The notes beneath the pieces are model-generated. The model saw nothing but the letters and a program-made list of their open reading frames with translations, did not search any database and was not told where the DNA came from. Made by a program: the position numbers and the translations under genes. From assembly GCF_030453185.1 (NCBI RefSeq), contig NZ_JAKDKW010000001.1:62001-126000 (forward strand): DNA of 64,000 nt, read 5' to 3'. Origin of the DNA: Yaniella sp. GTDB taxonomy: Bacteria > Actinomycetota > Actinomycetes > Actinomycetales > Micrococcaceae. This document shows, in pieces, positions 14,306-59,506 of this stretch (position 1 is its first letter; every line of letters starts with the position of its first letter).

Positions 14306-14902
14306 CTATTTTCCCTGCTCTGTTGTATCTGAAGCTTGCTCAGCCTCTAATTGTTCGCGTTCAGCATCGATGAGCCACTGCGGGATTTCTTCTTCGTGAC
14401 CGATGTCGAGATCTTCTTGTACGTGCATTGACCCGCCAAGAAGGTTCGTGAGCTCTTCTGGCTTATTCGTTGAAGTCAGCCAGTACGGAGTGCGGTCCTG
14501 TCTGTCTTCAATCTGGATGCGAACGACAGGTTTGACCCAGCTGCGCAGGTGAAGATAAGCCAAGCCATGGAGCTTGGGCCCGCGTTGCTGAAAAGCGTCA
14601 TCGCCACGGTAACCGGTTACCGTTCCGACATGTTTTCGCTCAATAGTTGCACGGCCAACCTGCACATGGGTTGTAGTAACGCTGATATCTGTTGTTGTGG
14701 ATATCAGCACAAAGGCGGCGACGGCCGCTACTACAATCCCGGATCCGATGCCCCAGCTGGTTCCGAAAGGCGCCAGAGTTAGCCAACCGATCCCTCCGGC
14801 TAGTAACACCATTAGCCACATCGGCCATGTGGGCCGCAATTTCTCGTGATAAACGATCGGGGATCCGCCCGGTCCAATTCGCTTTTCAACATTTTCAGTC
14901 AT
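14306..14902 (-). CDS. DUF3093-like membrane protein
   Basis: 198 aa; YHEKLRPTWPMWLMVLLAGGIGWLTLAPFG; located next to dut. Confidence 0.72.
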   Translation of the reverse strand: MTENVEKRIGPGGSPIVYHEKLRPTWPMWLMVLLAGGIGWLTLAPFGTSWGIGSGIVVAAVAAFVLISTTTDISVTTTHVQVGRATIERKHVGTVTGYRGDDAFQQRGPKLHGLAYLHLRSWVKPVVRIQIEDRQDRTPYWLTSTNKPEELTNLLGGSMHVQEDLDIGHEEEIPQWLIDAEREQLEAEQASDTTEQGK

Positions 14903-42836: not shown

Positions 42837-45680
42837 ATGGAGCAAACTGGGGAGTCAACGAACGGGCTCAATGTTGTGCCCGGTTCGGTTGTCAGTGTGC
42901 GTGATGCTACCTGGGTGGTCACTTCTGCCACGGCAACCCCCTCCGGCACGTTGGTCAAAGTCCAAGGCCTATCAGAACTCGTACGCGACACAGAAGCAGC
43001 GTTCTACTCTGACCTCGACACTATTGAAGTGATTGATCCACGTGAGGCGACGGTCGTTGCTGATGAATCACCACGGTACCGCCAGACCCGGTTATACCTA
43101 GAGACAGTGCTTCGCACCACTCCGGTACCGTCGATCTCAGACGAGCTCACGGTCAGCACTCGAATACTGGCTGACCCGCTCCAGTATCAACGCCGAGCCG
43201 TGGCCAAAGCACTAGATCCATCGTTGATTCGCCCGAGAATACTGCTCGCAGATGCCGTTGGTCTTGGCAAGACGCTTGAAATCGGGATGATCCTGGCTGA
43301 ACTCGTTGCTCGCGGTCGTGGTGAGAACATCCTGATTGTCACCCCACGCCACGTGCTGGAACAGATGCAGCATGAAATGTGGACGCGTTTTGCTCTGCCG
43401 TTTGTGCGGCTGGATTCAGTTGGTCTGCAACGCATTCGCCAGACGATCCCGGCAACTCGGAATCCTTTTACATATTTTAAGCGCGCTATTATCTCTATCG
43501 ATACGCTCAAAACTCCACGGTACCGGGCACACTTGGAAAAACGTCGGTGGGATGCGGTCGTGATCGACGAATCCCATAACCTCACCAATACCGGCACGTT
43601 GAATAACGAGCTCGCTCGCGTCCTGGCCCCACGCACCGATGCGCTGATTCTCGCGAGCGCAACTCCACACAACGGGAAAGAAGAATCCTTTGCGGAACTC
43701 TTGCGACTGCTCGATCCAACCGTGGTGAGTCCGCAAGGCGAAATCGACTATGAAGCAGCCAAGAAACTGGTGATCCGACGGCATCGGTACTCGCCCGAAG
43801 TTGCCAGTGAAGTTGGGGCGGACTGGGCTGAGAGACCAGAACCGCAGAACCGGCTGATCGCAGCGAGTCCAGCAGAAGATGCTATCGCTACGGAACTGGC
43901 TGAAACGTGGCTGCATAACCCACATGGCAGCCCAGGGACCAACCGCCTCTTTGGGTGGACACTCGCCAAAGCATTTCTCTCCAGCCCGGCAGCGCTTGCA
44001 GAAACCATTCGTGAACGCCTCCGGCCTTCCAAGAACGCCAGTGCCACAGAAGTCACGGCACTCAAACGACTCCTCGAACTCACCGACGAAGCCATGGAAA
44101 AGTCGTCCTCGAAATTCGAGGCACTCGTCGACCACCTAAAAGCCATTGGTGTCGGTCCCCGAAATGACACCCGAGTCGTAGTGTTCGCAGAACGACTTGC
44201 CACACTCCATCACCTGCAGCAAGACGTGCAAGCTGCGCTGAAGCTCAAGCCGAAGCATATCGGTCTGCTGCACGGGGGACTGTCTGATGTTGAGCAATTA
44301 GAGACGGTTGAAGAGTTCAAACGCGGTACCTCAGATCTCAAAGTCTTGATTACCGGTGATGTGGCATCCGAAGGGGTGAACCTGCATGCTCAGTGTCACA
44401 ACTTGGTGCACTACGACATCCCGTGGTCGTTGATCCGCATCGAACAGCGCAATGGACGTATTGATCGGTACGGTCAGACCAAGCCACCGCAGATCACAAC
44501 ATTGCTCTTGGAACCTTCGAACGAAAAGTTTTCGGGGGATGTGCGGATCTTTACTCGGCTGGTGCAGAAGGAGCACGAAGCACACCGGGCATTCGATGAT
44601 GTTGGCGTGCTGATGGGGAAGTACTCTGCCGAAGCGGAAGAAAGAGCAGTTCGAGATGCACTGGTACAGCAACAGGATCTCGAGACAGCAGTCCCAGATA
44701 AGCCTGATCTTGGCAACGACCCGGTCGCCGCACTCTTGGTAGGGATGAGCATCACGGACTCGCTCCTTTCAGAAACACGAGCAGAGCCTGCTGCCGAAGC
44801 AAACGCTGAGACCGACAGTCTGACTCCAGTCGTTGTTGCTACGGAACCAGGGCTCTATGCGACGGATCTGCAGTACCTCGATGAAGCGCTTGACGAAGCG
44901 TTTAACGATCCACAGCGAGCAGTGGACTGGGACACCGACGACCGATACCACGTGGCCACGCTCGCGCCACCCAGAGATCTACAACGCCGGCTGAGATTCC
45001 TACCGCGTGATTACGTGCGCGAACGGAAAGTCCTGCAACAATTGCGGTTGGCGACCAGTAAACAAGCCGGTGAGAAATCCCTACGTGACGCGCGATCAGA
45101 TGAGGATACAAACTGGCCGGCCGCTCACTATCTCGGCCCCCTGCACCCTGTGCTGGACTGGGCATCGGATCGAGCACTTGCCAACATGAGTCGTAATGAA
45201 GTGCCGGCCGTTCGAGGTGATGTGCCTGCGATCTCCTATCTGATGCTCGGCACGATTACGAACAAGCGCGGCCAAATTCTGAACCGAACATTTATGGGTG
45301 TTACCGGTGGTTTAGTCCAACCGGTTCAGAACCTCAGCGAATACTTCGCAGATATTGGGCTGACCGCAGACACCGCAAACCCGGGTGCCGTGAACACCGA
45401 ACCGTTGCAAGCAGAAATGGCTGCAGCTGTTGATGCTGCAGCGCAACACCTGTCCTGGGTGCGGCACAGCCTATCGGCGGATGCCGAAGACCGGCTTGAG
45501 GCATGGATCCAACGCGCGCAACGGTGGACTTCTGAGTCAGACACGCTGATACAGCGAACCACTGTGCAGCAGCGCGCCGGTCGTGTTCGTGAAGAACTTG
45601 ATCTGGCTGAAGAGCTCCGCCCGAACCAAGAGCTGGTACGTCCCTTATTAGCTGTCATGCCCCGTGAAGAAGGAGTGTAG
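42837..45680 (+). CDS. SNF2/Rad54-family DEAD/DEAH helicase, DrmD-like (putative defence component 1)
   Basis: 947 aa; LLADAVGLGKTLEIGMILAEL, VVIDESHNL, LILASATPHNGKEESFAELLRLLDP, LITGDVASEGVNLHAQCHNLVHYDIPWSLIRIEQRNGRIDRYGQ. Confidence 0.87.
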   Translation: MEQTGESTNGLNVVPGSVVSVRDATWVVTSATATPSGTLVKVQGLSELVRDTEAAFYSDLDTIEVIDPREATVVADESPRYRQTRLYLETVLRTTPVPSISDELTVSTRILADPLQYQRRAVAKALDPSLIRPRILLADAVGLGKTLEIGMILAELVARGRGENILIVTPRHVLEQMQHEMWTRFALPFVRLDSVGLQRIRQTIPATRNPFTYFKRAIISIDTLKTPRYRAHLEKRRWDAVVIDESHNLTNTGTLNNELARVLAPRTDALILASATPHNGKEESFAELLRLLDPTVVSPQGEIDYEAAKKLVIRRHRYSPEVASEVGADWAERPEPQNRLIAASPAEDAIATELAETWLHNPHGSPGTNRLFGWTLAKAFLSSPAALAETIRERLRPSKNASATEVTALKRLLELTDEAMEKSSSKFEALVDHLKAIGVGPRNDTRVVVFAERLATLHHLQQDVQAALKLKPKHIGLLHGGLSDVEQLETVEEFKRGTSDLKVLITGDVASEGVNLHAQCHNLVHYDIPWSLIRIEQRNGRIDRYGQTKPPQITTLLLEPSNEKFSGDVRIFTRLVQKEHEAHRAFDDVGVLMGKYSAEAEERAVRDALVQQQDLETAVPDKPDLGNDPVAALLVGMSITDSLLSETRAEPAAEANAETDSLTPVVVATEPGLYATDLQYLDEALDEAFNDPQRAVDWDTDDRYHVATLAPPRDLQRRLRFLPRDYVRERKVLQQLRLATSKQAGEKSLRDARSDEDTNWPAAHYLGPLHPVLDWASDRALANMSRNEVPAVRGDVPAISYLMLGTITNKRGQILNRTFMGVTGGLVQPVQNLSEYFADIGLTADTANPGAVNTEPLQAEMAAAVDAAAQHLSWVRHSLSADAEDRLEAWIQRAQRWTSESDTLIQRTTVQQRAGRVREELDLAEELRPNQELVRPLLAVMPREEGV

Positions 45681-45682
45681 CG

Positions 45683-48600
45683 TTGAGCTCATCTGAAGCA
45701 TTTGTCATTATCAATGACTGGATCAGTGAACACTACTTCACCGATACCGGGCGAGGCGAGACATTCCAAAAGCAGATTCGTGCGCTAAGAAAAATCTGGG
45801 ACGAAGATGCTGCCGATGGACACGACACCCCAGTCACGCGGTTCTCAGCCGAACGTCTCAAGATCCAGGAAGCCTTAGCCGGTTTGTCGATTGACGGTGC
45901 TGAAACGGCAGAGCGCGCGCGAGACGCATATGCCCGGTTACGCCAGATATTTGGCCACCACGGTCAACCCGAAGACCTCACGATGCAGCGTTCTCAAAAC
46001 GATCTGACGATTACTGCGACCCGACTTGGTGAAGCGACAGATGTGCTGTGGCTAGATGCCACTGCTGTCACCGGGACTGACCAGGGGCCAGACCAAGTCC
46101 AACTCCTGGGCACCAACTGTCTGGATGACACTCCGCGGCCCGACCAGCCGGTCTCGAAACTCCTGTCCGAGCTTTATCTAACAGAAACGGCACCGAGCTT
46201 TATCGTCGTGGCGGCAGGCAACGTCTTGTTCCTCACCGATCGCCAACGTTGGCCAGAAGGCCGGTACCTCGCGGTTGATGTACAACTCGTAGCAGATCGG
46301 AACGAGACCAAAAAGGGTGGGGAGATTGACCGCCTTCTGGCAGTGTTTAGCCGGAATTCCCTGATGCCAAGCGATGATGGCAGTATTTGGTGGACCCAAC
46401 GGCTCGAAGAGTCTCATCAACATGCAGTAGGGGTCTCACAAGATCTTCGCGACGGCATACGTGAATCCATTGAAATTATTGCCAACGATGTACTGATGCG
46501 AAGAACAGACCAAGGCCTCAGCAACGATGAGATTGACGGACAAGACTTGGCTCGTCAGTCGTTGCGATTCCTCTACCGCATACTGTTCCTGCTCTATGCG
46601 GAAGCATTCCCAGAACTGGGTGTCTTACCGAAGGGCGCGGGGGAGTACGATGCCGGCTACGGTATTGATCGTCTCCGAGAACTCTCCATGGTCGAATTGA
46701 CCGACAGTCGGGAACAGCAAGGCACTCACCTTTATGAATCACTCGCTTTGCTCTTCCAACTGGTAAACGGCGATCATGCGACCCAACAGCATAAGAGTCC
46801 TCACGAAGATGAGCTCGAGGACGAACTCGAAACGATTTCCGCTGAAGGCCTGGTCTTCGAGTCATTAGAAGCCGACTTGTTCATGCCTGAAGCTACTCAC
46901 CTGATCAACAGTTCCAAGCTCGGCAATTTGGCCATGCAGCACATTCTGCAACGCTTACTTCTTAGCCGCTCGGATAGTAAAGGGCCCCGCGGGTTTATCT
47001 CATATGCCAACCTTGGCATCAACCAACTCGGTGCCGTGTACGAAGGGCTGATGTCCTACACCGGCTTCATCGCAGAAACAGACCTTCGTGAAGTAGCGAA
47101 GAACGGGGACGCGTCCAAAGGATCCTGGGTTGTCTCCGTAGAAAAAGCTCTGGAGATCGATCCGAAGCACCTCGTAACCCGAATCGATGAACAGACGGGT
47201 ATAAAAGAACCAGTCCTACATCCGAAAGGCAGTTTCGTATTCAGACTGTCAGGTCGGGAACGTCAACAGTCGGCTTCGTTCTATACGCCAGAGGTGATGA
47301 CAAAGTTCGTTGTATCCCAGGCATTGGCAGAGTTATTGGACGAAAACACTCGCGCCGATGACATTCTGAACCTCTCCATCTGTGAGCCCGCACTTGGATC
47401 AGGTGCTTTCGTCATTGAGGCAGTACGCCAGCTAGCTGATGAATACCTCACCAGGAAACAAGATGAGCTCGGACAACAAATCGAGCCTGAAAGCTATGCT
47501 CAAGAACTTCAAGCAGTAAAAGCACAGATCGCGCTCCACCAAGTCCATGGAGTGGATCTGAACTCTACTGCCGTCGAACTGGCGGAAGTATCCCTCTGGT
47601 TGGACACTATGCAGCCGGGGCTCCATGCACCTTGGTTTGGGCTGCGACTAAAACGCGGTAACTCGTTAGTAGGTGCGAGGAGGGCTACCTACACGACTTA
47701 TGGAGTCGAGAAGAAAAAATACCTCACCGAAGCTCCGGAACCTGCCCCAATGACCGGGTTAGCTGATGCATTAGAGCGGGGTTCTGTGGATTCCGCCGTG
47801 CAGGGACGGATCCATCACTTCCTCCTCCCGGGTGAAGGCTGGGGTGCTGGCGGCAAAGCTAAAGAAGTAAAGGACCTTGTTCCTACTGAGCAGAAGGCTC
47901 TGAATGACTGGGCACGGAGTACAAAAACAAAGCTCAGCAGTGACCAGATCAGAAGACTTCAAGGGTTAGCGCAGCGGGTTGAGACGCTATGGGGTCTTGC
48001 CACACGACGCTTACAAATTGCTGAATCTGAAGCGAGAAGATTCATTGACTATTGGCCACGAGAACGTGAAGCAGAGCATAACGTAATTACTCGTGAACAA
48101 ATCGAGGCGTCGCTGGCCAATGAAAATGGCGCCTACCGCCGACTCAAACGGGTCATGGACGCCTGGACTGCCCTCTGGTACTGGCCACTCACGGAACGCG
48201 AAGTGCAACCACCAACCATCGATCAATGGATCGATGCCCTCGAAAGGATCCTTGGCAAACCAGGTAAAGAATCGAAGTTTGAAGGCCAAGACACATTACT
48301 GAGTTCAGCCGATTGGGACGAGCTGAACGAGTTTGAGGAACTGGATCTTGATTTTGCAGGGGCAGCCCGGATAGACGAGAAATTCTTCGACGATCATCCT
48401 TGGTTGCGAGTGCTGGAAGATGTTTCCCAGGAGCAAGCATTCTTCCATTGGGAGCTGGAATTCGGACCAGTATTTGCGCATGGCGGCTTTGACCTCCAAG
48501 TGGGTAATCCTCCGTGGGTAAGACCCCGTTCAGACGAATCTGCACTTCTTGCCGAATTTGATCCGTGGTGGCAACTCGCGGAGAAACCAACGCAGGCAGA

Positions 48601-50317
48601 AATTAGAACCAAACGCACGAACACTTTATCCACTACGAACCGTATTGATGAGTTTGTAGATGCGGCTGCAACAGTTCCTGCATTAGCTACTTTCTTACGT
48701 GCAAAATCTCAGTACCCAATCTTGAGCGGTCTGCAACCAGATTTATACAGGGTATTTATGGAGCGGACCTGGCGTTCGGCAAATGAACACGGCGTGAGCG
48801 CACTTGTACATCCTGAGTCACACTTCACAGAGAAAGGTGCTTGGAATCTTAGAACAGTTGCATATCAACGGTTGCGTCGCCACTGGCAGTTCATTAACGA
48901 ATTTAAGCTGTATGAAATTGCCAATACAGCCACATACGGAGTTCACATTTACGGAGACCGGCGTACCAATCCTCACTTTGCAATGGCCGTTTCTCTATAT
49001 CATCCTGATACTGTCGAACGCTCTCTGGAACACGAGGGAGGTACGGAAGTTCCTGGGCTCAAAGACTCTGAAGGGAATTGGGATACTAGACCTCACCGAG
49101 AGCGAATCCTTGACATCAATATCGACACACTTAATATTTGGGCAAGGATTCTAGACGAACCGGGTACGCCGCCATTACACGCTCGAATGATTTACCCTGT
49201 GAATAGGGCAAGTATGGCTGTACTCGAAAAGCTAAGCCATGCTCCGAGAGTACGAAAATTAGGACTGCAATATTCTCCTGGGTGGCACGAAACTGCTGAT
49301 CGAAAACGTGGCTATTTCGAGGTTGGCTCCAAGACCAACGCATCATGGGAAGACGTCATATTACAAGGTCCGCATTTCAATGTTGCCAACCCCTTCGCAA
49401 AAATCCCGAACCCCACTATGAAGAGCCACAGAGATTGGGCTTCATTAGACCTAGAAGCGCTTCCCGTAAGCTTTATCCCTCGCACCAGTTATCAACCGGT
49501 CAGAGGTGTCAATTCGACCTATGATCAGGACTACGGCAATTGGCTAGATCGTGGTGGAGAGCCGAAACCGCAAAGGAATTTCTATCGTATAGCCTGGCGT
49601 AGAATGGCATCCAGAACGGGTGAGCGCACTCTGCGTGCCACGGTAATCCCTCCTCAAGCTGCCCATATTAATACTGTGCAGTCGGCTTGGCATAACGAAG
49701 GGGACCTCGAATCGACAGTACTTTTGGCGGGAGTTTTTTCTTCGATAGTCGCTGATTTTATGATCAAAATTGGTGGTGCATCAGATATTCTCGGCAATAC
49801 CATCGATGCTCTTCCAATTGTTTCGGGCGAATCAATTGCTATTGCAATTAGGAGACGTGCCATCGCTCTCATGAAATTAACGGAAGCCTTTGATGGTTTA
49901 GAAACTATAGATCGATTAGGAACAGCTCCAATTTCGGCACTTAGAGTGGCCAGTGAGAGGCGTCAGGCACTTATTGAGATTGATGCCCTAGTCGCCTTAG
50001 ATTTGGGCATTTCTATCGATGAGCTGTGCACAATCTACCGTACACAGTTCCCAGTATTGAGGGGATACGAGCAAACTGATTTGTATGATGCAAATGGACG
50101 TCAGATTCCCATAGAGATGAATCAGAACTACCGACAAGTCGGCGAAAACGGCATGACTGTAGAAGCCCGTACTTGGGTACATCCACAGAGTGAGGTCGAG
50201 TACGTCTTCGAATTCCCCTTTAGAAGCTTTGATCGTGAGGAAGACATGCGTGCAGCTTATGAAAGATTTAGCCGCATGCTCGAAGACCACGGCCGGATCA
50301 TTGAAGACGAGGACTAA
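45683..50317 (+). CDS. Large Eco57I/PglX-type N6-adenine DNA methyltransferase, DrmMI-like (putative defence component 2)
   Basis: 1544 aa; FYTPEVMTKFVVSQAL, SAM motif ICEPALGSGAFVIEA, HGVDLNSTAVELAEVSLWLDTM, catalytic QVGNPPWVRP; TTG start 2 nt after the previous stop, with aaggag upstream. Confidence 0.88.
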   Translation: MSSSEAFVIINDWISEHYFTDTGRGETFQKQIRALRKIWDEDAADGHDTPVTRFSAERLKIQEALAGLSIDGAETAERARDAYARLRQIFGHHGQPEDLTMQRSQNDLTITATRLGEATDVLWLDATAVTGTDQGPDQVQLLGTNCLDDTPRPDQPVSKLLSELYLTETAPSFIVVAAGNVLFLTDRQRWPEGRYLAVDVQLVADRNETKKGGEIDRLLAVFSRNSLMPSDDGSIWWTQRLEESHQHAVGVSQDLRDGIRESIEIIANDVLMRRTDQGLSNDEIDGQDLARQSLRFLYRILFLLYAEAFPELGVLPKGAGEYDAGYGIDRLRELSMVELTDSREQQGTHLYESLALLFQLVNGDHATQQHKSPHEDELEDELETISAEGLVFESLEADLFMPEATHLINSSKLGNLAMQHILQRLLLSRSDSKGPRGFISYANLGINQLGAVYEGLMSYTGFIAETDLREVAKNGDASKGSWVVSVEKALEIDPKHLVTRIDEQTGIKEPVLHPKGSFVFRLSGRERQQSASFYTPEVMTKFVVSQALAELLDENTRADDILNLSICEPALGSGAFVIEAVRQLADEYLTRKQDELGQQIEPESYAQELQAVKAQIALHQVHGVDLNSTAVELAEVSLWLDTMQPGLHAPWFGLRLKRGNSLVGARRATYTTYGVEKKKYLTEAPEPAPMTGLADALERGSVDSAVQGRIHHFLLPGEGWGAGGKAKEVKDLVPTEQKALNDWARSTKTKLSSDQIRRLQGLAQRVETLWGLATRRLQIAESEARRFIDYWPREREAEHNVITREQIEASLANENGAYRRLKRVMDAWTALWYWPLTEREVQPPTIDQWIDALERILGKPGKESKFEGQDTLLSSADWDELNEFEELDLDFAGAARIDEKFFDDHPWLRVLEDVSQEQAFFHWELEFGPVFAHGGFDLQVGNPPWVRPRSDESALLAEFDPWWQLAEKPTQAEIRTKRTNTLSTTNRIDEFVDAAATVPALATFLRAKSQYPILSGLQPDLYRVFMERTWRSANEHGVSALVHPESHFTEKGAWNLRTVAYQRLRRHWQFINEFKLYEIANTATYGVHIYGDRRTNPHFAMAVSLYHPDTVERSLEHEGGTEVPGLKDSEGNWDTRPHRERILDINIDTLNIWARILDEPGTPPLHARMIYPVNRASMAVLEKLSHAPRVRKLGLQYSPGWHETADRKRGYFEVGSKTNASWEDVILQGPHFNVANPFAKIPNPTMKSHRDWASLDLEALPVSFIPRTSYQPVRGVNSTYDQDYGNWLDRGGEPKPQRNFYRIAWRRMASRTGERTLRATVIPPQAAHINTVQSAWHNEGDLESTVLLAGVFSSIVADFMIKIGGASDILGNTIDALPIVSGESIAIAIRRRAIALMKLTEAFDGLETIDRLGTAPISALRVASERRQALIEIDALVALDLGISIDELCTIYRTQFPVLRGYEQTDLYDANGRQIPIEMNQNYRQVGENGMTVEARTWVHPQSEVEYVFEFPFRSFDREEDMRAAYERFSRMLEDHGRIIEDED

Positions 50318-50320
50318 GTC

Positions 50321-53300
50321 ATGGTTGCGCTGCTCCCGACCCGTCAGGCCACGGATCTTGTCTCAGGTATCCAGGACTATCTCACAACGACTTTCGCGCT
50401 GTCAGACAAGCCGGCACAGGCTGCAGTCCGTGAGTTCCTGTCGGATCGTGACAATGGCATGTTCAAGGGGCCGTATATCCGGTTGCGGCTGCCGTTCCAA
50501 CCGGCTCAAGACGGTTGGGAGAATTTCCTCGGTCATCATTTTGGGGAGTTCACGCCCTACGGGCACCAAGCGCTGGCGTATGAGCGTTTAAGTTCGTTTG
50601 GACGTGATGGCCAACGGTTCCGTCGTCCTGAACCGACGTTGGTCACCACCGGTACCGGGTCAGGCAAGACCGAGGCGTTCTTGCATCCGATCTTGGATCA
50701 CGTACTGCGTGCTAAGCGCGAGGGCATTACCGGGATGAAAGCACTCATCTTGTATCCAATGAACGCATTGGCAAATGATCAAGCAGCACGACTAGCACAG
50801 CTTCTCACCACGGATACACGACTCTCCGGTATCCGCGCCGCTCTCTACACAGGTCAAAAAGGGAAAGATCGGTCTCGAGTCACCGCCGACAGTTTGATCA
50901 CCAACCCCCAAGCGATTCAAGACCATACGCCAGATATCTTATTGACCAACTACAAAATGTTGGATCAATTGCTGCTGCGGCATAACGATGCTCCTATCTG
51001 GGAAGCCTCGGCGCTGAGTCTGCAGTACTTGGTTCTTGATGAATTCCACACCTACGACGGTGCTCAAGGAACCGACGTGGCCATGCTGCTGCGACGCTTA
51101 GGCATGACGCTGAAGTCCTATTGGCCAGCATCATCTGATGGCGGCGCTGATGCAGTCACTGCTGAAGATCGACAACGTCCACTGGGCATGATCACTCCCG
51201 TGGCCACGTCGGCCACACTGGGCGGTGGTGACGGTGGCGAGGAGATGCTGCACTTTGCCGAAACCATCTTTGGCGAAAAGTTTGATGAGGCATCGCTGAT
51301 CACCGAATCGCGTATGAGCTTTGCCCAGTGGCAGCAGTTGAGCCCAGCGGGTGCTGGCTTGCCCCGCGGTCTTGAAGAGCTTAGTGCGTCTATTTCTGAG
51401 ACCAATCGGGTGGTCGAAGCTAACCCGTCTGAAGAAGAAATTCTTGACACGATTTTGGACGCGCTGTTTGAACAGCCTCCAGAACATGAGCCTCACGTGA
51501 TGCTTGATGCGCTGCGCCACCATCCGCTCACAGAATTCTTGGTCGTGCACACTGAAACTGCCCGGGATATCACTGAACTGACAGAGTTGCTGTTTCCGAG
51601 GTTGACCGGGGAGAAGGAACTTGTAGAGGCCGCCGAATTTGTGAGCCACATCCTGGCCCTGTACTCCTATGTTCGCGTTGCGACAGGACGTCTGGCGCTA
51701 ACGGTTGAAACGCACTTATGGATCCGAGAACTCACCCGTATTGACGCGAAAGTGGATACGTCTCTTGAGTTCCGTTGGGGCGATGACCCGGTGGTGGAGA
51801 CCGAAGAACTTGCACAGGGTGAAGCACCGGCAACCTATCTGCCGGCAGTCTACTGTCGCCACTGTGGCCGGTATGGGTGGGGTGCAAAGCTCGCTCCGAC
51901 ACAGTCAGAACTGATCATTGATCCAGATGAGATCCGCCAGGCCTCGCTGACTCACGAAGCAGACTTTCGTGTCCTGCTCGAAGGCGGAGCAGAAGCCGAC
52001 GAAGCCGCGCGGGAAGGCCGCAGCTACCGCTCTACCAAAGCCATCGGGCTGCGGTACTTTCATCGACAAAAACAAACACTGGATACCAGGCCGCCAGAAG
52101 ATGATGATCCAGATCTACATCGAGGTCTGATCATTCCGGTTCTGGCTTTAGACGGTGATGAGGTTGTCGAACAGTCACAAAACGATGTCTGCCCGGCGTG
52201 CTTCACCGAAGATGCCATCCGTTTCGTAGGTTCTGCTGTTTCCACCCTGACATCGGTTGCGATCTCTACGCTCTTTGGCGACTCTGATTTGGATCGTGCA
52301 GAGAAGAAAGCGCTGGTCTTTACCGACTCTGTTCAGGATGCATCACATCGAGCCGGCTTTATCCAGGCACGCTCGCGCACGTTTACCTTGCGTAGCCAGT
52401 TACGCAACGGTTTTGCCGACACCGGATATGCCACGATGACCTTGGCACAGTTAGTCAATAGTGTCATGAACGTTCCCGATGTGGCTGATGAGCGTTTTCA
52501 TCGCTTCCGTCTAATCCCGCCGGATTTGGTTGAGCGCAAAGGTTTTGCTGAGTTCTGGCAAGAACGTGCCACCGGACGGGACCGGAGCCGTGCTTACACC
52601 AATGTGCAGCGGCGGCTTTCCTTCGACGCTGCCTTGGAATTAGGGCTGAGCGCTCGTATGGGGCGGACCCTTGAACTCACCGGATCAGTCGTTGCTGAGG
52701 CAGACGCAGGATCTGACGCGAAACTTGCCGCCATCGCACAAAAAGCCTGGGACACCACGCTGCATATCCTGCCCGATACGGGCGTCCCATCGCAGGAGGA
52801 ATTCTTGCACTGGGCTCGTGGATTCTTGGTTCGCATGCGACTGCGCGGCGGGATTTATCACGACTGGTTACGGCGCTACATTGAAAGTGGCGGGCGTAGA
52901 TATTGGCTCTGGGGAGGTCGCCCTCGAGAACAAGGCATGCAAGCGTTTCCCAAGGGTCGCCCCGCGCCAGCGTTTCCGGTGGTGGGATCAACACTTCCCG
53001 ATAGCGGCTTAGACCCGGTAGCCTCTCGTCGGAGCTGGTATAACGACTGGACCCATCGAACCCTGGAAGTTGGTCGGGATGATGCCAGTGTCTTAGCCAG
53101 AAAACTGTTCGAGCTGCTCCATGAAGGTGGCATCCTCATGGCGTTGAAAGCCGAACCGGGTGCAACTGCTTATGCATTAGCTCCGGAACAGGTCATGCTG
53201 GCTGTTCCCAGTGCTGCAGGGCTGCGCAATGGGGAGCATGCGGTGCAGTGTTCGGTGTGTGGGACCATGAGCTTCGGGACGCCACTGGTCGTTGAGCAGT

Positions 53301-56300
53301 TGCTTGGTGCACCATGTCTGCGTCAAACCTGCAAGGGATTCCAAGAACGCGGCATTTTTGACCCGAAAAATTATTATCGCCAGTTGTATGCCTCAACCGA
53401 CGGCAAACGCGTGGTCGCCAAGGAACATACGTCGGTCTTGAAGGATAAAGACCGGCTTGCATATGAGGATGGTTTCAAGAAGACGTTGCAGGATCCGGGC
53501 GACCCCAACGTGCTGGTTGCCACGCCCACCCTGGAAATGGGCATCGACATTGGTGACCTCTCCTGTGTCATGCTGGCCTCCCTCCCAACATCTGTTGCCA
53601 GCTATGTGCAACGTGTGGGCCGTGCAGGTCGCCTGACCGGGAATGCCTTGGTTGTTGCGTTTGTCCAAGGCAGGGGAGCGCACCTGCCGAAGCTCAACGA
53701 TCCACTGTCTGTTATTGATGGTGAAGTTCGTCCACCCAAGACGTATCTGGACGCTGAAGAGATTCTGATGCGTCAGTTTATGGCATTTCTTGGCGATAAA
53801 CTTGCCCGAGATCCTGAGGCAGCACACCCGCGGCAGGCCAAAGAGGTCATGCAATCGGTCAAACCGAATAGCTATTTCGGGCAGCTTATCGCGTTGGCTC
53901 AGTCTGATGACCGTGCACTGGTTGATGAGTTCCTGCACGCTTTTGGCAGTCTTGTCTCGGAGTCCAGCCAGCAACGGCTCTATGCCTGGGTGCAACATGA
54001 GATGGCAGGTGTACTGGAACATGCAACGGTTGAGTGGCAACAACTCGGTGAAGCGTTACGGCACCGCATCCGTGATGTCCAAGACGCCCTTGAGGACCTG
54101 ACGCAAGATTTCCACCAGGCCCAACACGATTTCGGCCACGACGAGAAACATCCGAAGTTGAAAGAGGCGGAACGTGACGTCAACTCCGCTACCGCCCAGC
54201 TCAAACGGCTTCGGGCGGAAGAAAATGAATTGAACACCGGCTGGTGGATTGCACAGCTGGAACGACATGGCATCTACCCGAATTACACGTTGATCGGTGA
54301 GCCAGTCGTCCTCAACGTCGGTGTTTCGTGGCGAGATGAAGACACGCAAGAATTTGAAACCGAGACCTATGAATTAGAACGTATGGCTGACGTTGCAATC
54401 CGTGAGCTTGCCCCAGGCGCCACGTTCTATGCCTATGGGATGGAAATCGACATCGATGCTGTCGACCTCGGCCCGCAAAACCGGAACTTGCAATACTGGC
54501 AGATCTGTCCAGGATGCGGCTGGATTAATGCCATTGAGCATACCGGTACAGAGCGTGGTTATAGTGGTCTGGTTTCCAGCTGTGCTCGCTGTGATTCCAA
54601 CGCTATCCATGACCAGGGGCAGATTTATACGACACTGGAACTGAGCCGGGTCAGTGCTGAAGTGCGCCGCGACGAAGCGTCCATCAGTGATAACCGGGAT
54701 AGCCGCCGAAGAACACGATTCACCGTGGTTCCGGTCAATGATGTTGAACCCAATGGTGTCGACACTCGTTGGTTCGTGGCTGAAAATGGTTTCGGTGTCG
54801 AATATCTTCGTCAAACCACGGTCACCAACCTCAACTTTGGCCTTACTTCGCGGCGATCTACCGTGCGTGATATTGCAGGACAACGCATTGCCAACGCACC
54901 ACTGTTTACGATTTGTGCCTATTGTGGTCAGCTACGTCGGTCGGAACAAGCCCATTCAAAATATGATCACCGCTTATGGTGCAGATATCGCAAGGCGGAT
55001 GAGGCACCCGAAGAAGATGTACTGTTAGCCCACCGGTTGCGGACTCAAGGCGTCAAGCTGCATCTACCGTTGCAGCCCGAATACGCTGATGATTATGTAG
55101 CACCCACGCTACTAGCCGCGGTGCAGCTGGGACTCGTGGAACACCTGGGCGGCGCCACCGGACAGGTCGCTGCGTTTGAGCTACTAGATCACGACACAAT
55201 GCACGCCATGACCCTGTTGATCCATGACAGGGTTCCTGGCGGAACCGGCTATCTGGCAGCGTTTAAAGAACCTCAGACCGTCTTCGAAGTGCTCAAAGCG
55301 GCCTGGGAAATCGTCAGTCAGTGTCCATGTCAGCAGGAGGAGCGGCGAGCATGTCACCGTTGTCTGCTGCCGTATGCGCCCTACAAAATGGAAGACCACG
55401 TAGCCCGTGTGACCGCAGAACGGCTCCTGACTGAACTTCTCGCAGTCCCGGATGGTGCCTCAGATGTTCAGAGCATGCCGTGGACCATCCAAAATGATCC
55501 GGTCGAACGCGACGCAGGGGAATCCATGCTGGAAGTGGAATTCCGGGACGCATTGAAACAGCGGTTGGATTCCCAAGGCGTCAAATGGGAATCGGTCCCC
55601 ACAGCGCGCGGTGAGGAATTGCGCTTCCGAATACCGGATAAGCGAACCTCGGGCAGATTGCATTCCTGGAGCCTCCGGCCGCAGGTCGATATCGAGGGGA
55701 CACGCCCGGATTTTAAGCTCATCTCTGGTGATGCGAATCTTCCAAGCCTGGCAATCTACACCGACGGATTCACCTACCACGCGACACCCGGTTATAACCG
55801 GGTCGGTGATGATGCCATGAAACGACACCGGTTGCGGATGCAAGGCGATGCGTTGCCCTGGGCGATCACATACCAAGACATAGAATTGTTCCTGGTCAAC
55901 CGTGAACATAGCAATACTGCCGTGCGGGCGAATGCTTGGTTGAACCAAAACACCGTCCAAGCGCTGCAACAGCAGCATGCGTTCCAAAAAGATATTGTGG
56001 AATCCATTCCGCGGGGCAACCTGGAGCTGCTGTGGCAGTGGATCCAAGACCCGGATATTAGCCAATGGCAACACACCGCAAACTTGGCCGGAGCATTGGC
56101 CTTGTCAGATTCCGCAGCGCAAGGCTCCATCGAACAAGAACACGCAAGCGAGTTTCAATTAACTGCTGAACAAGCCAATACGCATCTAAACACCGCACAG
56201 GGTGACTATCTCCACTGGATGCGGCAACTCGGTGCAGTCAATATGTTGGTCAGAGGCGACCTCAGAAACTCGCTAACTATGCGCAGCATACTGGTACTTC

Positions 56301-56770
56301 ATGATGGTTCAGATGCTATGCACACCTACGACTACAAACACGCCTGGCAGCAGTGGCTCACCTGGTCGAACATGTTGGCTTTCGTATCTGACCCCGGTTC
56401 CGTGCTGATCGCTACCCAATCCACGGCTCAGACTCTGTGGGAAGAGCTCTACGGCGCCTCCGATGTCCGAGTCACCGAGGCCCCGGGAATCGATGTGGCA
56501 CGGCCAGCTGTACCGGTGGGCTGGGAAATTGTCTTCGAAGAAGCCGAAGCCGATGAACATGCCTTTTTCCAAGAGCTAGCAGAGCACGGTTTACCGGTGC
56601 CCGAGATTGGCGATGAAATGGACGGTGTCATGCTGCAGGTTTCCTGGCCAGACCACAAGGTTGCGGTCGTCTACGATCCCGAAGACATCGAACCGGTCCA
56701 GTCCAAGGGTTGGACCGCTGTGGTAACGGACGACACCGCAGCAGTACTGGTAGCACTGGGGCAGGACTAG
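50321..56770 (+). CDS. Giant DEAD/DEAH-box helicase with zinc-ribbon and DUF1998/MrfA-like regions (DruE-like or DrmA-DrmB-like) and C-terminal PD-(D/E)XK-like module (putative defence component 3)
   Basis: 2149 aa; TTGTGSGKTEAFLHPILDHVL, LVLDEFHTYDGAQGTD, VATSATLGGG, VLVATPTLEMGIDIGDLSCVMLASLPTSVASYVQRVGRAGR, CPCQQEERRACHRCLLPYAP plus several CxxC ribbons. Confidence 0.87.
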   Translation: MVALLPTRQATDLVSGIQDYLTTTFALSDKPAQAAVREFLSDRDNGMFKGPYIRLRLPFQPAQDGWENFLGHHFGEFTPYGHQALAYERLSSFGRDGQRFRRPEPTLVTTGTGSGKTEAFLHPILDHVLRAKREGITGMKALILYPMNALANDQAARLAQLLTTDTRLSGIRAALYTGQKGKDRSRVTADSLITNPQAIQDHTPDILLTNYKMLDQLLLRHNDAPIWEASALSLQYLVLDEFHTYDGAQGTDVAMLLRRLGMTLKSYWPASSDGGADAVTAEDRQRPLGMITPVATSATLGGGDGGEEMLHFAETIFGEKFDEASLITESRMSFAQWQQLSPAGAGLPRGLEELSASISETNRVVEANPSEEEILDTILDALFEQPPEHEPHVMLDALRHHPLTEFLVVHTETARDITELTELLFPRLTGEKELVEAAEFVSHILALYSYVRVATGRLALTVETHLWIRELTRIDAKVDTSLEFRWGDDPVVETEELAQGEAPATYLPAVYCRHCGRYGWGAKLAPTQSELIIDPDEIRQASLTHEADFRVLLEGGAEADEAAREGRSYRSTKAIGLRYFHRQKQTLDTRPPEDDDPDLHRGLIIPVLALDGDEVVEQSQNDVCPACFTEDAIRFVGSAVSTLTSVAISTLFGDSDLDRAEKKALVFTDSVQDASHRAGFIQARSRTFTLRSQLRNGFADTGYATMTLAQLVNSVMNVPDVADERFHRFRLIPPDLVERKGFAEFWQERATGRDRSRAYTNVQRRLSFDAALELGLSARMGRTLELTGSVVAEADAGSDAKLAAIAQKAWDTTLHILPDTGVPSQEEFLHWARGFLVRMRLRGGIYHDWLRRYIESGGRRYWLWGGRPREQGMQAFPKGRPAPAFPVVGSTLPDSGLDPVASRRSWYNDWTHRTLEVGRDDASVLARKLFELLHEGGILMALKAEPGATAYALAPEQVMLAVPSAAGLRNGEHAVQCSVCGTMSFGTPLVVEQLLGAPCLRQTCKGFQERGIFDPKNYYRQLYASTDGKRVVAKEHTSVLKDKDRLAYEDGFKKTLQDPGDPNVLVATPTLEMGIDIGDLSCVMLASLPTSVASYVQRVGRAGRLTGNALVVAFVQGRGAHLPKLNDPLSVIDGEVRPPKTYLDAEEILMRQFMAFLGDKLARDPEAAHPRQAKEVMQSVKPNSYFGQLIALAQSDDRALVDEFLHAFGSLVSESSQQRLYAWVQHEMAGVLEHATVEWQQLGEALRHRIRDVQDALEDLTQDFHQAQHDFGHDEKHPKLKEAERDVNSATAQLKRLRAEENELNTGWWIAQLERHGIYPNYTLIGEPVVLNVGVSWRDEDTQEFETETYELERMADVAIRELAPGATFYAYGMEIDIDAVDLGPQNRNLQYWQICPGCGWINAIEHTGTERGYSGLVSSCARCDSNAIHDQGQIYTTLELSRVSAEVRRDEASISDNRDSRRRTRFTVVPVNDVEPNGVDTRWFVAENGFGVEYLRQTTVTNLNFGLTSRRSTVRDIAGQRIANAPLFTICAYCGQLRRSEQAHSKYDHRLWCRYRKADEAPEEDVLLAHRLRTQGVKLHLPLQPEYADDYVAPTLLAAVQLGLVEHLGGATGQVAAFELLDHDTMHAMTLLIHDRVPGGTGYLAAFKEPQTVFEVLKAAWEIVSQCPCQQEERRACHRCLLPYAPYKMEDHVARVTAERLLTELLAVPDGASDVQSMPWTIQNDPVERDAGESMLEVEFRDALKQRLDSQGVKWESVPTARGEELRFRIPDKRTSGRLHSWSLRPQVDIEGTRPDFKLISGDANLPSLAIYTDGFTYHATPGYNRVGDDAMKRHRLRMQGDALPWAITYQDIELFLVNREHSNTAVRANAWLNQNTVQALQQQHAFQKDIVESIPRGNLELLWQWIQDPDISQWQHTANLAGALALSDSAAQGSIEQEHASEFQLTAEQANTHLNTAQGDYLHWMRQLGAVNMLVRGDLRNSLTMRSILVLHDGSDAMHTYDYKHAWQQWLTWSNMLAFVSDPGSVLIATQSTAQTLWEELYGASDVRVTEAPGIDVARPAVPVGWEIVFEEAEADEHAFFQELAEHGLPVPEIGDEMDGVMLQVSWPDHKVAVVYDPEDIEPVQSKGWTAVVTDDTAAVLVALGQD

Positions 56771-56786
56771 AAGGAGCTCGATCACA

Positions 56787-59012
56787 ATGCCTATGGTGAC
56801 TATGGCAAATCACAAGAACAAACTGGATGGTTCGGTTCATCAAGCGGCCTATAAGTTCTTACACAAACTGCAGGCTGATGACACGACCCTGGGCCTGCAT
56901 ATTGAACCCATGGTGAACGCCCGTGATGACCGCGCCAGAACCGGTCGGGTGAATAAACAATGGCGAGCAGTGCTCTACAAGATCACCTCAGATATGGGAA
57001 ACCATTATGTCTATATGGGGACCTACCCGCACGATGAGGCTATTGAAATTGCCAGAAGCCACGTGTTGAAGATGAACCTGGCACTGGGCGTGCCGGAGTT
57101 CCAGAAAATCGTCGATGAAGATGTCCCCAAAATTCCTGCGACACCAAACACTCCCACGGCGGAGCAGTCGGCTGTCGCACCGGAAAACCCAGAACCGGTC
57201 GCTTCCGAACCTGACTGGGAGAACCATCTTGGGAAACACTGGACACAAGAGACCCTCGTCCAAGAAGCTGGTATTGCTTCCGAACGAGCTACCAAGGCAC
57301 TTGCCGCCACCACAATGTCCGAGCTGCATGCAGTCATAGACGACGCCCCCGAAGCTCAAGGCCTCGTCCTTCTGGGTCTTGCCAATGGGCGAGACTTTGA
57401 GGAGATCAAAGACGAACTAGGACTGGAACCGCTCGAGGCCGGCGATGAAGAAACTCAACTTGCAGAGTCTCTGCGCAAGGCATCGGTCGGCTTCGTCTAT
57501 GTTGGAGACAACCCCGATGAGCTTAAGGACGCTCTGGAATCGAAAAACTTTGATAGCTGGCGGGTGTTTCTCCACCCCGAACAGCGTCGCTTTGCCGAAC
57601 AAAACACCTCAGGCGCCTACCGGCTATCTGGGGGAGCAGGAACCGGGAAGACCGTGGTGTTGGTGCATCGCGCTCGCAATCTAGCGAAGAAATACCCGCA
57701 GGCACGCATTATCTTGTCGACCTTCACAAAGGTACTCGCGGAGTCTTTACAATCCCAATTGAAGAAACTTGATGCCTCGGTGCAACAAGTACAGCGCATT
57801 GGGACACCTGGTGTCGCTGTCCTGGGACTCGACCAAATAGCCGCCCAGGTTGTTGCTCAAACAGAACCAAAAGAGCTTACTGAAGCCACGCAAAAGGTTC
57901 TGGGACCAACAGCCAATTCCCTAGCAGGGCGAACGCTGAACGTCCACGAAGCCTTCGAAACTGCTGCACGAATTGCGCAACCAGATCTTGCCGAGGATCT
58001 GTGTCATCCTAGCTTCCTAGAACAAGAGTATGTTTCGGTTGTGCTGGCACACCGGATTGTCGATGAGACAGCATATGTCCGCGCCAACCGAAAGGGACGA
58101 GGTACAGCACTGGGGCGGAAGCAGCGTAAGGAATTATGGAAGGTGTTTCACCAGTTCCGGCGTGACCAGCAATTGAATAACCAAGTGACGTTTCCCGAAG
58201 TTGCCACGATTGCAGCCGCCATCTTAGAAGACCGTGCCACGCAGGGAGTCTCCTTGCCAGCTGACCATGTGCTGGTCGACGAAGGACAAGACCTGCACAG
58301 TGGCCACTGGGCCATGTTGCGAGCCATCGTCCCAGAGGGGCCGGACGATTTGTTTATCGCCGAGGACTCACATCAGCGAATCTACGGACAGAAAGTTCCG
58401 CTATCGCGCTTCGGCATCAATATCGTTGGTCGTGCACGCCGACTGCGGCTGAATTACCGCACAACGGCCGAAAACCTTGCGTTGGCGGTACGAGTGTTGG
58501 ACGGGGGAGACTACACCGATTTAGAAGATATACCGGAAGATGCATCTGGATATCAGTCCGTGCGCTCAGGCCCACGGCCTCATCTGGTTGCTGCTGGGTC
58601 GCTTCGTCAACAAATTGTGGAAGCTGCGAAGTTCATCCGCTCCTGGGTAGACGATGGTGTTGCCCCCGATGCCATCGGCGTGATGGTTCGCAGCGAACGC
58701 ATTAAAGACCAAGTGGAACGCGGCCTACGGGATGATGAAGCGTTGGCACCTAATACGGGTTCCGATTCAGCTGTACAAATCATCACCATGCACAGCGCCA
58801 AGGGCATGGAATTCGAACGTGCCATTATCATCGGGGCTGGTGCAGACCAGATACCAGCTGCTTGGCAACTTGCCGACCTGCCCGAGTCTGAACAGCACGA
58901 TATCGAACTTCGAGAACGGTCTCTGTTGTACGTGGCCGCAACCCGCGCACGTGATGAACTGGTGATCACTTGGGCTGGCGAGGTGTCTGGCTATCTCACG
59001 CGAGTTTCATAG
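56787..59012 (+). CDS. UvrD/Rep-family superfamily 1 helicase with N-terminal RelE/ParE-like domain (putative defence component 4)
   Basis: 741 aa; N-terminus LDGSVHQAAYKFLHKLQADDTTLGLHIEPMVNARDDRARTGRVNKQWRAVLYKI...YVYMGTYPHDEAIEIAR; helicase motifs LSGGAGTGKTVVLVHRA, VLVDEGQDL, LNYRTT, IITMHSAKGMEFERAIIIG, LLYVAATRARDELVITW. Confidence 0.87.
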   Translation: MPMVTMANHKNKLDGSVHQAAYKFLHKLQADDTTLGLHIEPMVNARDDRARTGRVNKQWRAVLYKITSDMGNHYVYMGTYPHDEAIEIARSHVLKMNLALGVPEFQKIVDEDVPKIPATPNTPTAEQSAVAPENPEPVASEPDWENHLGKHWTQETLVQEAGIASERATKALAATTMSELHAVIDDAPEAQGLVLLGLANGRDFEEIKDELGLEPLEAGDEETQLAESLRKASVGFVYVGDNPDELKDALESKNFDSWRVFLHPEQRRFAEQNTSGAYRLSGGAGTGKTVVLVHRARNLAKKYPQARIILSTFTKVLAESLQSQLKKLDASVQQVQRIGTPGVAVLGLDQIAAQVVAQTEPKELTEATQKVLGPTANSLAGRTLNVHEAFETAARIAQPDLAEDLCHPSFLEQEYVSVVLAHRIVDETAYVRANRKGRGTALGRKQRKELWKVFHQFRRDQQLNNQVTFPEVATIAAAILEDRATQGVSLPADHVLVDEGQDLHSGHWAMLRAIVPEGPDDLFIAEDSHQRIYGQKVPLSRFGINIVGRARRLRLNYRTTAENLALAVRVLDGGDYTDLEDIPEDASGYQSVRSGPRPHLVAAGSLRQQIVEAAKFIRSWVDDGVAPDAIGVMVRSERIKDQVERGLRDDEALAPNTGSDSAVQIITMHSAKGMEFERAIIIGAGADQIPAAWQLADLPESEQHDIELRERSLLYVAATRARDELVITWAGEVSGYLTRVS

Positions 59013-59041: not shown

Positions 59042-59506
59042 TTAGCTAGACGAGCCGCCGCGGCGCGGAGCAGCTAGATCATCGGAATCAATGACCAGCG
59101 TGAACGGTCCGCTGTTCACCAAAGCAACGTCCATCATTGCTCCAAATTCGCCGGTGGAAACCTCAAGCCCCTGAGCTCGGACCTGTTCTACGAAATATTC
59201 ATACAGTGGCTCAGACTGTTCAGGGCGGGCAGCATTTGACCAGGATGGCCTACGGCCCTTTCGAACATCAGCGTTGAGCGTGAACTGCGAGACCACCATG
59301 ACAGGCGCATTCAGATCCACCGCAGATTGCTCGTCTCCAAGAATCCGCAAATTTACGATCTTATTGACCAGGGCATCGGCTTGTTCCTCGCCGTCGTGGA
59401 CGTGTACTCCCAATAAGATCATGAGACCTGGACGGGGGAGTTCACCCACCACTTTTTCATCGACGGTGACACTGGCTGAAGTTACGACTTGGATGACTGC
59501 ACGCAT
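59042..59506 (-). CDS. dtd: D-aminoacyl-tRNA deacylase
   Basis: 154 aa; MRAVIQVVTSASVTVDEKVVGEL, VVSQFTLNADVRKGRRPSW, GEFGAMMDVALVNSGPFTLVID. Confidence 0.95.
   Translation of the reverse strand: MRAVIQVVTSASVTVDEKVVGELPRPGLMILLGVHVHDGEEQADALVNKIVNLRILGDEQSAVDLNAPVMVVSQFTLNADVRKGRRPSWSNAARPEQSEPLYEYFVEQVRAQGLEVSTGEFGAMMDVALVNSGPFTLVIDSDDLAAPRRGGSSS

What the first reader, a model, noticed from the sequence alone, without database searches (positions are those of the whole stretch)
56787..57085. RelE/ParE toxin-like domain fused to the N-terminus of a UvrD helicase
The first ~95 aa (KLDGSVHQAAYKFLHKLQADDTTLGLHIEPMVNARDDRARTGRVNKQWRAVLYKITSDMGNHYVYMGTYPHDEAIEIARS) follow the RelE-superfamily layout: two helices, then 'R(T)GRV...WRAVLYKI', then a terminal strand ending in HDEA. 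A Pro/Ala/Glu-rich linker (IPATPNTPTAEQSAVAPENPEPVASEP) and a small helical segment lead into a complete UvrD motor. No antitoxin gene is adjacent. Inference: the motor domain or its partner proteins may restrain a ribonuclease/ribosome-targeting or gyrase-targeting activity that is released on infection.
Basis: partly seen in the sequence, partly recalled or inferred. Interest (0 to 1): 0.72.

Follow-up and report, generated by a model that had tools for sequence, protein, structure and literature searches.

The report
ARMADA type II helicase with RelE domain
The gene is the fourth gene (armD) of a recently described four-gene anti-phage system, ARMADA type II: a DNA-helicase motor that carries at its front a genuine RelE/YoeB-type nuclease domain whose catalytic residues look intact, most likely used to destroy phage nucleic acid directly rather than to poison the cell.

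Summary
Residues 1-112 of the 741-aa ORF at 56787-59012 form a RelE-superfamily domain, fused through a linker and a helical spacer to a complete UvrD motor, with no antitoxin gene nearby. Evidence: an AlphaFold model (pLDDT 85) whose 26 best PDB matches are all RelE-superfamily toxins, a family-profile search, and alignment to E. coli YoeB. YoeB's general base E46, arginines R59/R65 and general acid H83 map to E40, R54, R60 and H82; R60 is invariant in 56 non-redundant relatives. YoeB Y84 is replaced by an almost invariant D83. The locus is not new in kind: the four-gene operon 42837-59012 is ARMADA type II (Bell et al. 2025 preprint), whose ArmD is described there as a UvrD helicase with a RelE-like domain. 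New here: the YoeB-type active-site map; a second, in sampled Pseudomonadota commoner, home of the same fusion (BPTD_3080 restriction endonuclease + type III-like methyltransferase + RelE-UvrD), with His, as in YafQ, at the general-base position; and empty and scarred insertion sites in congeners. Whether the domain cleaves RNA, DNA or nothing is untested.

The parts
56787..59012 (+). armD: 741-aa protein, RelE-like domain + linker + helical spacer + UvrD/GajB-like SF1 helicase
   Evidence: ORF; Pfam UvrD-helicase/UvrD_C over cut-off; PADLOC GajB and NERD+UvrD models
56787..57122 (+). RelE/YoeB-superfamily N-terminal domain, residues 1-112
   Evidence: AlphaFold; Foldseek PDB; profile vs PDB; hhalign vs E. 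coli YoeB
56904..56906 (+). E40, aligned with YoeB general base E46 (E 24, K 6, R 1 in ARMADA relatives; H in all 18 restriction-modification relatives)
   Evidence: YoeB residue roles PMC3814384
56946..56948 (+). R54, aligned with YoeB R59 (54/56 R, 2 K)
56964..56966 (+). R60, aligned with YoeB R65; invariant in 56/56 non-redundant relatives
57030..57035 (+). H82-D83: H82 aligned with YoeB general acid H83 (52/56 H, 4/56 R); D83 at the place of YoeB Y84 (52/56 D)
57120..57215 (+). Pro/Ala/Glu-rich linker, residues 112-143, low pLDDT
57216..57572 (+). helical spacer, residues 144-262, ending at the conserved WRVFLHP motif before the motor
   Evidence: secondary structure; alignment
57573..59012 (+). 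UvrD motor, residues 263-741
42837..45680 (+). armA: SNF2/BrxHII-DrmD-like helicase, 947 aa
   Evidence: homologues in the same order in other ARMADA loci
45683..50317 (+). armB: PglX/YeeA-like adenine methyltransferase, 1544 aa, NPPW at 942
50321..56770 (+). armC: YprA-like DEAD helicase with MrfA Zn-binding (MZB) domain and a C-terminal PDF...TDG stretch that could be the Vsr-type nuclease described for ARMADA (nuclease not tested here), 2149 aa
   Evidence: architecture PMC12458937
40813..42630 (+). aspS, left flank of the insertion
59042..59506 (-). D-aminoacyl-tRNA deacylase (dtd), right flank; aspS and dtd are neighbours in congeners without the operon
   Evidence: sequence (name from recognition); empty sites

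Best explanation
The gene is armD of an ARMADA type II anti-phage operon. Its N-terminal domain is a true RelE-superfamily domain of the YoeB type with general base (E40), two phosphate/transition-state arginines (R54, R60) and general acid (H82) in place. It most likely acts as a nuclease module carried by the UvrD-type motor: ArmA and ArmC (SF2 helicases) with the methyltransferase ArmB recognise and process non-self DNA, and the UvrD motor moves along the resulting single strand (or RNA-DNA hybrid) and feeds nucleic acid to the RelE active site, so phage DNA or nascent transcripts are cut on the spot without harm to the host. Shown here: the fold, the fusion, the conservation, the operon identity. 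Shown by others: all four E. coli ARMADA genes and the ArmD Walker A lysine are needed, and defence is non-abortive. Inferred: that the domain is catalytic, its substrate, and the hand-over from the motor. (Identity as ArmD with a RelE-superfamily domain: about 0.95; the nuclease mechanism: the figure given.)
For: Fold. Homology: profile hits; stand-alone relatives, one of which is Pfam ParE_like over the cut-off and another (L113) has an adjacent MazE-type antitoxin ORF. Active site: hhalign to YoeB places E46/R59/R65/H83 on E40/R54/R60/H82, supported at E40, R60 and H82 by the S. aureus YoeB alignment; the most conserved N-domain columns in 56 non-redundant relatives are R60, R54, H82, D83; natural variants at 82 (R) and 40 (H, K) are residues found in other active RelE-family toxins (YafQ H50 PMC3814384). 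Non-abortive defence and need for ArmD: PMC12458937. The best Foldseek match is Agrobacterium YoeB; a YoeB toxin from that species cleaves RNA and single- and double-stranded DNA without the ribosome (PMC7878887). The same fusion recurs with a BPTD_3080 restriction enzyme and a type III-like methyltransferase, which fits a DNA-processing role.
Against: No catalytic residue of any ArmD RelE domain has been mutated or assayed, as far as found. YoeB needs Y84 (Y84A abolishes activity, PMC3814384) and ArmD has D83 there; a tyrosine three residues later, common in relatives, is Ile in the window. The YoeB alignment is weak on its own (hhalign probability 50%, pairwise E 1.6e-4); hhalign to RelE and YafQ gave nothing. 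The full-length model is too poor (pTM 0.37) to say where the domain sits on the motor.
Confidence: 0.5

Rival explanations
1. Non-catalytic adaptor: the RelE fold has been kept as a nucleic-acid- or protein-docking platform that anchors the UvrD motor to the ArmABC complex or to a DNA/RNA end; the conserved Arg/His/Asp contact phosphate or a partner.
For: YoeB Tyr84 is replaced by Asp and the window clade lacks the following Tyr; Walker A, not the RelE domain, is what has been shown to matter in ArmD (PMC12458937); the same N-domain is found in front of a Ser/Thr kinase in a Streptomyces plasmid with Ser at position 40.
Against: The four best conserved N-domain positions are the YoeB R59/R65/H83/Y84 positions, and position 40 holds residues known as general base elsewhere.
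Confidence: 0.27
2. Restrained ribosome-dependent mRNA interferase: the motor or ArmABC hold the RelE domain inactive; phage DNA frees it to cut mRNA on ribosomes and stop the cell.
For: RelE/YoeB-type catalytic residues; no antitoxin, so restraint would have to be in cis; stand-alone relatives look like toxin-antitoxin toxins.
Against: E. coli ARMADA type II cells stay intact with little metabolic change on infection (PMC12458937).
Confidence: 0.18
3. ParE-like gyrase poison fused to a helicase.
For: Some relatives score against Pfam ParE_like; ParE structures appear among weaker Foldseek hits.
Against: RNase-type catalytic positions are kept; ParE toxins are described as lacking them (PMC11980606); the best fold and sequence matches are YoeB/RelE.
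Confidence: 0.03

Closest known systems
ARMADA type II (armABCD), Bell et al. 2025 preprint PMC12458937
   Same: Same four genes in the same strict order and strand; ArmD is a UvrD/GajB-like helicase with N-terminal RelE-like domain; methyltransferase NPPW, YprA-type ArmC, SNF2-type ArmA.
   Different: Actinobacterial (Yaniella-like) host; window ArmD only about 29% identical to an E. coli plasmid homologue; Ile instead of Tyr after HDEA; anti-phage activity of this operon untested.
YoeB (E. coli; Agrobacterium 6n90)
   Same: Fold; general base Glu, two Arg, general acid His at aligned positions.
   Different: Fused to a helicase, no YefM antitoxin, Asp in place of catalytic Tyr84, longer C-terminal helix and hairpin.
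Gabija GajB (UvrD-like helicase)
   Same: UvrD-type motor of a defence system; the best PADLOC matches of ArmD are NERD+UvrD and GajB models.
   Different: Carries a RelE domain and works in an ARMADA operon; no GajA in the operon.
BPTD_3080 restriction endonuclease (NF046055) + type III-like methyltransferase operons with RelE-UvrD (found here)
   Same: Homologous RelE-UvrD protein of about 690 aa at the 3' end of the operon.
   Different: No ArmA/B/C; a well-separated clade of the helicase tree; His instead of Glu at the general-base position.

Membership tests
ARMADA type II | Gene order SNF2/BrxHII-like helicase, PglX-like methyltransferase, YprA-like helicase, RelE-UvrD, one strand | tested here: met
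   Window ORFs 42837-59012; the same order in independent loci, e.g. the E. coli plasmid locus L026.
ARMADA type II | Catalytic motifs of the four proteins (Walker A in A, C, D; NPPW and GxG in B) | tested here: met
   GLGKT, NPPW, GSGAF, GTGSGKT, GGAGTGKT found.
ARMADA type II | C-terminal Vsr-type nuclease in ArmC | tested here: inconclusive
   PDF...TDG motif at 1796-1816 of ArmC, but no Pfam hit there.
ARMADA type II | Placement of ArmC in the ARMADA type II clade of the YprA tree | not tested
   Only pairwise matches to ArmC homologues were made.
ARMADA type II | Protects against phages | not testable with these tools
   Shown only for E. coli systems (PMC12458937).
RelE/YoeB superfamily (BECR fold) | Fold | tested here: met
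   AlphaFold pLDDT 85; Foldseek prob 1.00 to many RelE-superfamily toxins.
RelE/YoeB superfamily (BECR fold) | Sequence homology | tested here: met
   Profile hits in PDB, HigB-like E 1.3e-4 for a family member, YoeB hhalign; not detectable from the window sequence alone.
RelE/YoeB superfamily (BECR fold) | YoeB catalytic set E46, R59, R65, H83, Y84 | tested here: inconclusive
   Four of five matched (E40, R54, R60, H82); Y84 replaced by D83.
RelE/YoeB superfamily (BECR fold) | Nuclease activity | not testable with these tools
   Needs biochemistry.
Type II toxin-antitoxin module | Adjacent antitoxin gene | tested here: not met
   Neighbours are armC and, on the other strand, dtd.
ParE gyrase inhibitor | Loss of RNase catalytic residues | tested here: not met
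   E40, R54, R60 and H82 are kept.

The most novel reading that the evidence does not exclude
RelE-UvrD is a portable motor-nuclease, used in two otherwise unrelated methylation-guided defence systems (ARMADA type II and BPTD_3080 restriction-modification), in which a YoeB-type active site is delivered along phage DNA or transcripts by a helicase and cuts them directly, i.e. a RelE-family domain working as a processive anti-phage nuclease instead of a toxin-antitoxin toxin.
Probability: 0.3. Interest if true: 0.72.

Novelty: new member of a known kind. Interest (0 to 1): 0.42.

Why it matters
The architecture itself was published in 2025, so the window adds an actinobacterial example. What is useful is that the published work mutated only the motor motifs of ArmD (K266A, D454N; PMC12458937); the residue map given here says which RelE-domain positions to mutate. 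Finding the same fusion, with a different general-base residue, in a distinct restriction-modification operon that is commoner than ARMADA type II in the sampled Pseudomonadota suggests the module is a general effector and gives a second system in which to test it.

Tried and rejected
Direct Pfam, NCBIfam and PDB sequence searches with the window domain alone: nothing. hhalign of the family to E. coli RelE and YafQ: no useful alignment, so residue mapping rests on YoeB. Full-length AlphaFold with eight rows: pTM 0.37, not interpreted. Viral-contig scans with the window, E. coli plasmid and Rhizobium proteins found nothing; an alphaproteobacterial ArmD and an alignment did find relatives. Considered and rejected: chance resemblance (fold, profile and conservation agree); toxin-antitoxin module (no antitoxin); DISARM proper (in the window the YprA helicase and its Zn-binding region are one 2149-aa gene; PMC12458937 describes split genes plus a PLD nuclease for DISARM). 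Foldseek against viral structures: no E below 0.001; two hits are annotated ParE-like phage proteins.

Full report
Observation. Residues 263-741 are a complete UvrD motor (PF00580 and PF13361 over cut-off; Walker A at 282, DEGQD at 498).

Family. Homologues were collected from whole genomes, GTDB contigs, plasmids and viral contigs. A 20-row alignment of the N-domain (A1) scores RelE/YoeB chains as its four best PDB matches (2khe, 3bpq, 7v5y, 7v6w), and single members score against HigB-like (E 1.3e-4), ParE_like and YoeB in Pfam. In genomes of the window's phylum the profile also finds stand-alone 84-122 aa relatives. A representative of one group is Pfam ParE_like over the cut-off, and another relative (L113) lies next to a MazE-type antitoxin ORF.

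Fold. AlphaFold on residues 1-114 with nine sequences of the window and of loci allowed for folding gives pLDDT 85, pTM 0.80, elements E3-6 H15-30 E50-54 E59-68 E71-81 H82-91 E92-97 E102-107. The 26 best PDB matches are all RelE-superfamily toxins or toxin-antitoxin complexes, first 6n90 (Agrobacterium YoeB/ParE toxin, E 9e-4, prob 1.00, TM 0.54/0.67), then E. coli YoeB, M. tuberculosis RelE1, YafQ, HigB.

Active site. hhalign of the family to E. coli YoeB aligns YoeB E46, R59, R65 and H83 with window E40, R54, R60 and H82; the S. aureus YoeB alignment agrees at E40, R60 and H82. In YoeB these are general base, two transition-state/RNA-contact arginines and general acid; Y84 is also needed (PMC3814384). 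In 56 non-redundant RelE-UvrD fusions (85% identity cut) R60 is 56/56, R54 54/56, H82 52/56 (the other four Arg), D83 52/56. Position 40 is Glu in 24 of 31 ARMADA rows (Lys 6, Arg 1) but His in all 18 restriction-modification rows; His is what YafQ has at the matching position. Thus the base/acid pair and the arginines look kept, with Asp in place of Tyr84. This argues for a catalytic rather than a ParE-type domain, but it is conservation, not activity.

Operon. The gene is the last of four co-directional ORFs, 42837-59012, with gaps of 2, 3 and 16 bases: SNF2/DrmD-BrxHII-like, PglX-like methyltransferase with NPPW, YprA-like helicase with MrfA Zn-binding domain, RelE-UvrD. This is ARMADA type II as described by Bell et al. 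(PMC12458937), including the RelE-like domain at the N-terminus of ArmD. That work reports that in E. coli all four genes and the ArmD Walker A lysine are needed and that infected cells stay intact with little metabolic change. It predicted but did not test the RelE domain. No later ARMADA paper was found in the library. ArmABCD homologues in the same order recur in actinobacterial and proteobacterial loci, e.g. L026 (E. coli plasmid), L170, L171, L173, L176, L181, L182, L184.

Second home. Many Pseudomonadota relatives lack ArmA, B and C. Neighbour clustering shows a conserved order instead: about 1020 aa BPTD_3080 restriction endonuclease (NF046055, 1319 bits; Pfam ResIII and RE_endonuc), usually one variable ORF, about 950 aa type III-like methyltransferase (PADLOC MTase_III, 1212 bits), usually another variable ORF, then RelE-UvrD. 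In the two searches of the 399-genome Pseudomonadota sample NF046055 is found in 28 genomes and strong N-domain matches (E below 1e-27) in 25; 17 genomes have both, 16 of these on the same contig within about 13 kb, whereas six of the 25 are ARMADA loci. In the helicase tree (479 columns, quick method) the 18 such rows sit with two unassigned rows and L157 in one group of 21 (support 100, midpoint root), apart from the 31 ARMADA rows and four unassigned ones. L157 also has a 2031-aa YprA-type helicase upstream. One actinobacterial copy lies next to McrC (L172, PF10117) and a more distant one near a 1223-aa AAA_5 protein (L186). No paper describing the BPTD_3080 link was found; the library is limited, so this is not proof of novelty.

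Mobility. Nine genomes of the genus were looked at, the window's included. Besides the window, two carry ArmD sequence at this place (G297, in contig pieces 98% identical to the window; G299, a C-terminal part at a contig end), five have aspS next to dtd-rarA without arm genes, and one (G301) keeps a broken ArmD C-terminal remnant (residues 668-739) between aspS and dtd. The operon is therefore gained and lost at one site, as expected of a defence island.

Mechanism. Best supported: a motor-coupled nuclease acting directly on phage nucleic acid within ARMADA (0.5). The non-abortive phenotype and the recurrence with a restriction endonuclease favour this over a released toxin (0.18). The Asp for Tyr84 change and the Ile in the window clade leave a non-catalytic adaptor open (0.27). 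A gyrase poison is unlikely (0.03). A published YoeB from Agrobacterium cuts RNA and both single- and double-stranded DNA without the ribosome (PMC7878887), so a DNA substrate is possible for this fold. Which substrate ArmD uses cannot be told from sequence.

Noticed in passing
L151, L153, L155-L166, L168, L169, L174 (whole), L034, L036, L037: Recurring operon BPTD_3080 restriction endonuclease - variable ORF - type III-like methyltransferase - variable ORF - RelE-UvrD. The variable slots hold unrelated defence-type genes, e.g. a GmrSD_N protein (L166) and an AAA_15/AAA_21 ATPase (L165). Not found described in the library.
   Followed up: partly
L025:11977-14037: Streptomyces plasmid protein with the same RelE-like N-domain and spacer fused to a Ser/Thr protein kinase instead of UvrD, with Ser at the general-base position; a barstar-family gene lies just downstream on the other strand (14468-14758).
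   Followed up: partly
L172, L186: RelE-UvrD next to McrC (L172), and a more distant RelE-UvrD relative near a 1223-aa AAA_5 protein (L186): possible further contexts.
   Followed up: partly
L200:2449-2657: Scar: broken ArmD C-terminal remnant between aspS and dtd in a congeneric genome that has otherwise lost the operon.
   Followed up: yes
L027:18100-19893: Tsukamurella plasmid ARMADA locus carries a second UvrD-type helicase gene directly after armD.
   Followed up: no
L033, L177, L178, L179: Streptomyces ArmD variants end the RelE core with HRKxVY or HRGQVY, the canonical RelE-like motif, instead of HDxAY, a natural swap at the general-acid position.
   Followed up: yes
L157:10940-17032: A 2031-aa YprA-type helicase lies upstream of a BPTD_3080 - methyltransferase - RelE-UvrD operon, a possible hybrid between the two systems.
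   Followed up: partly
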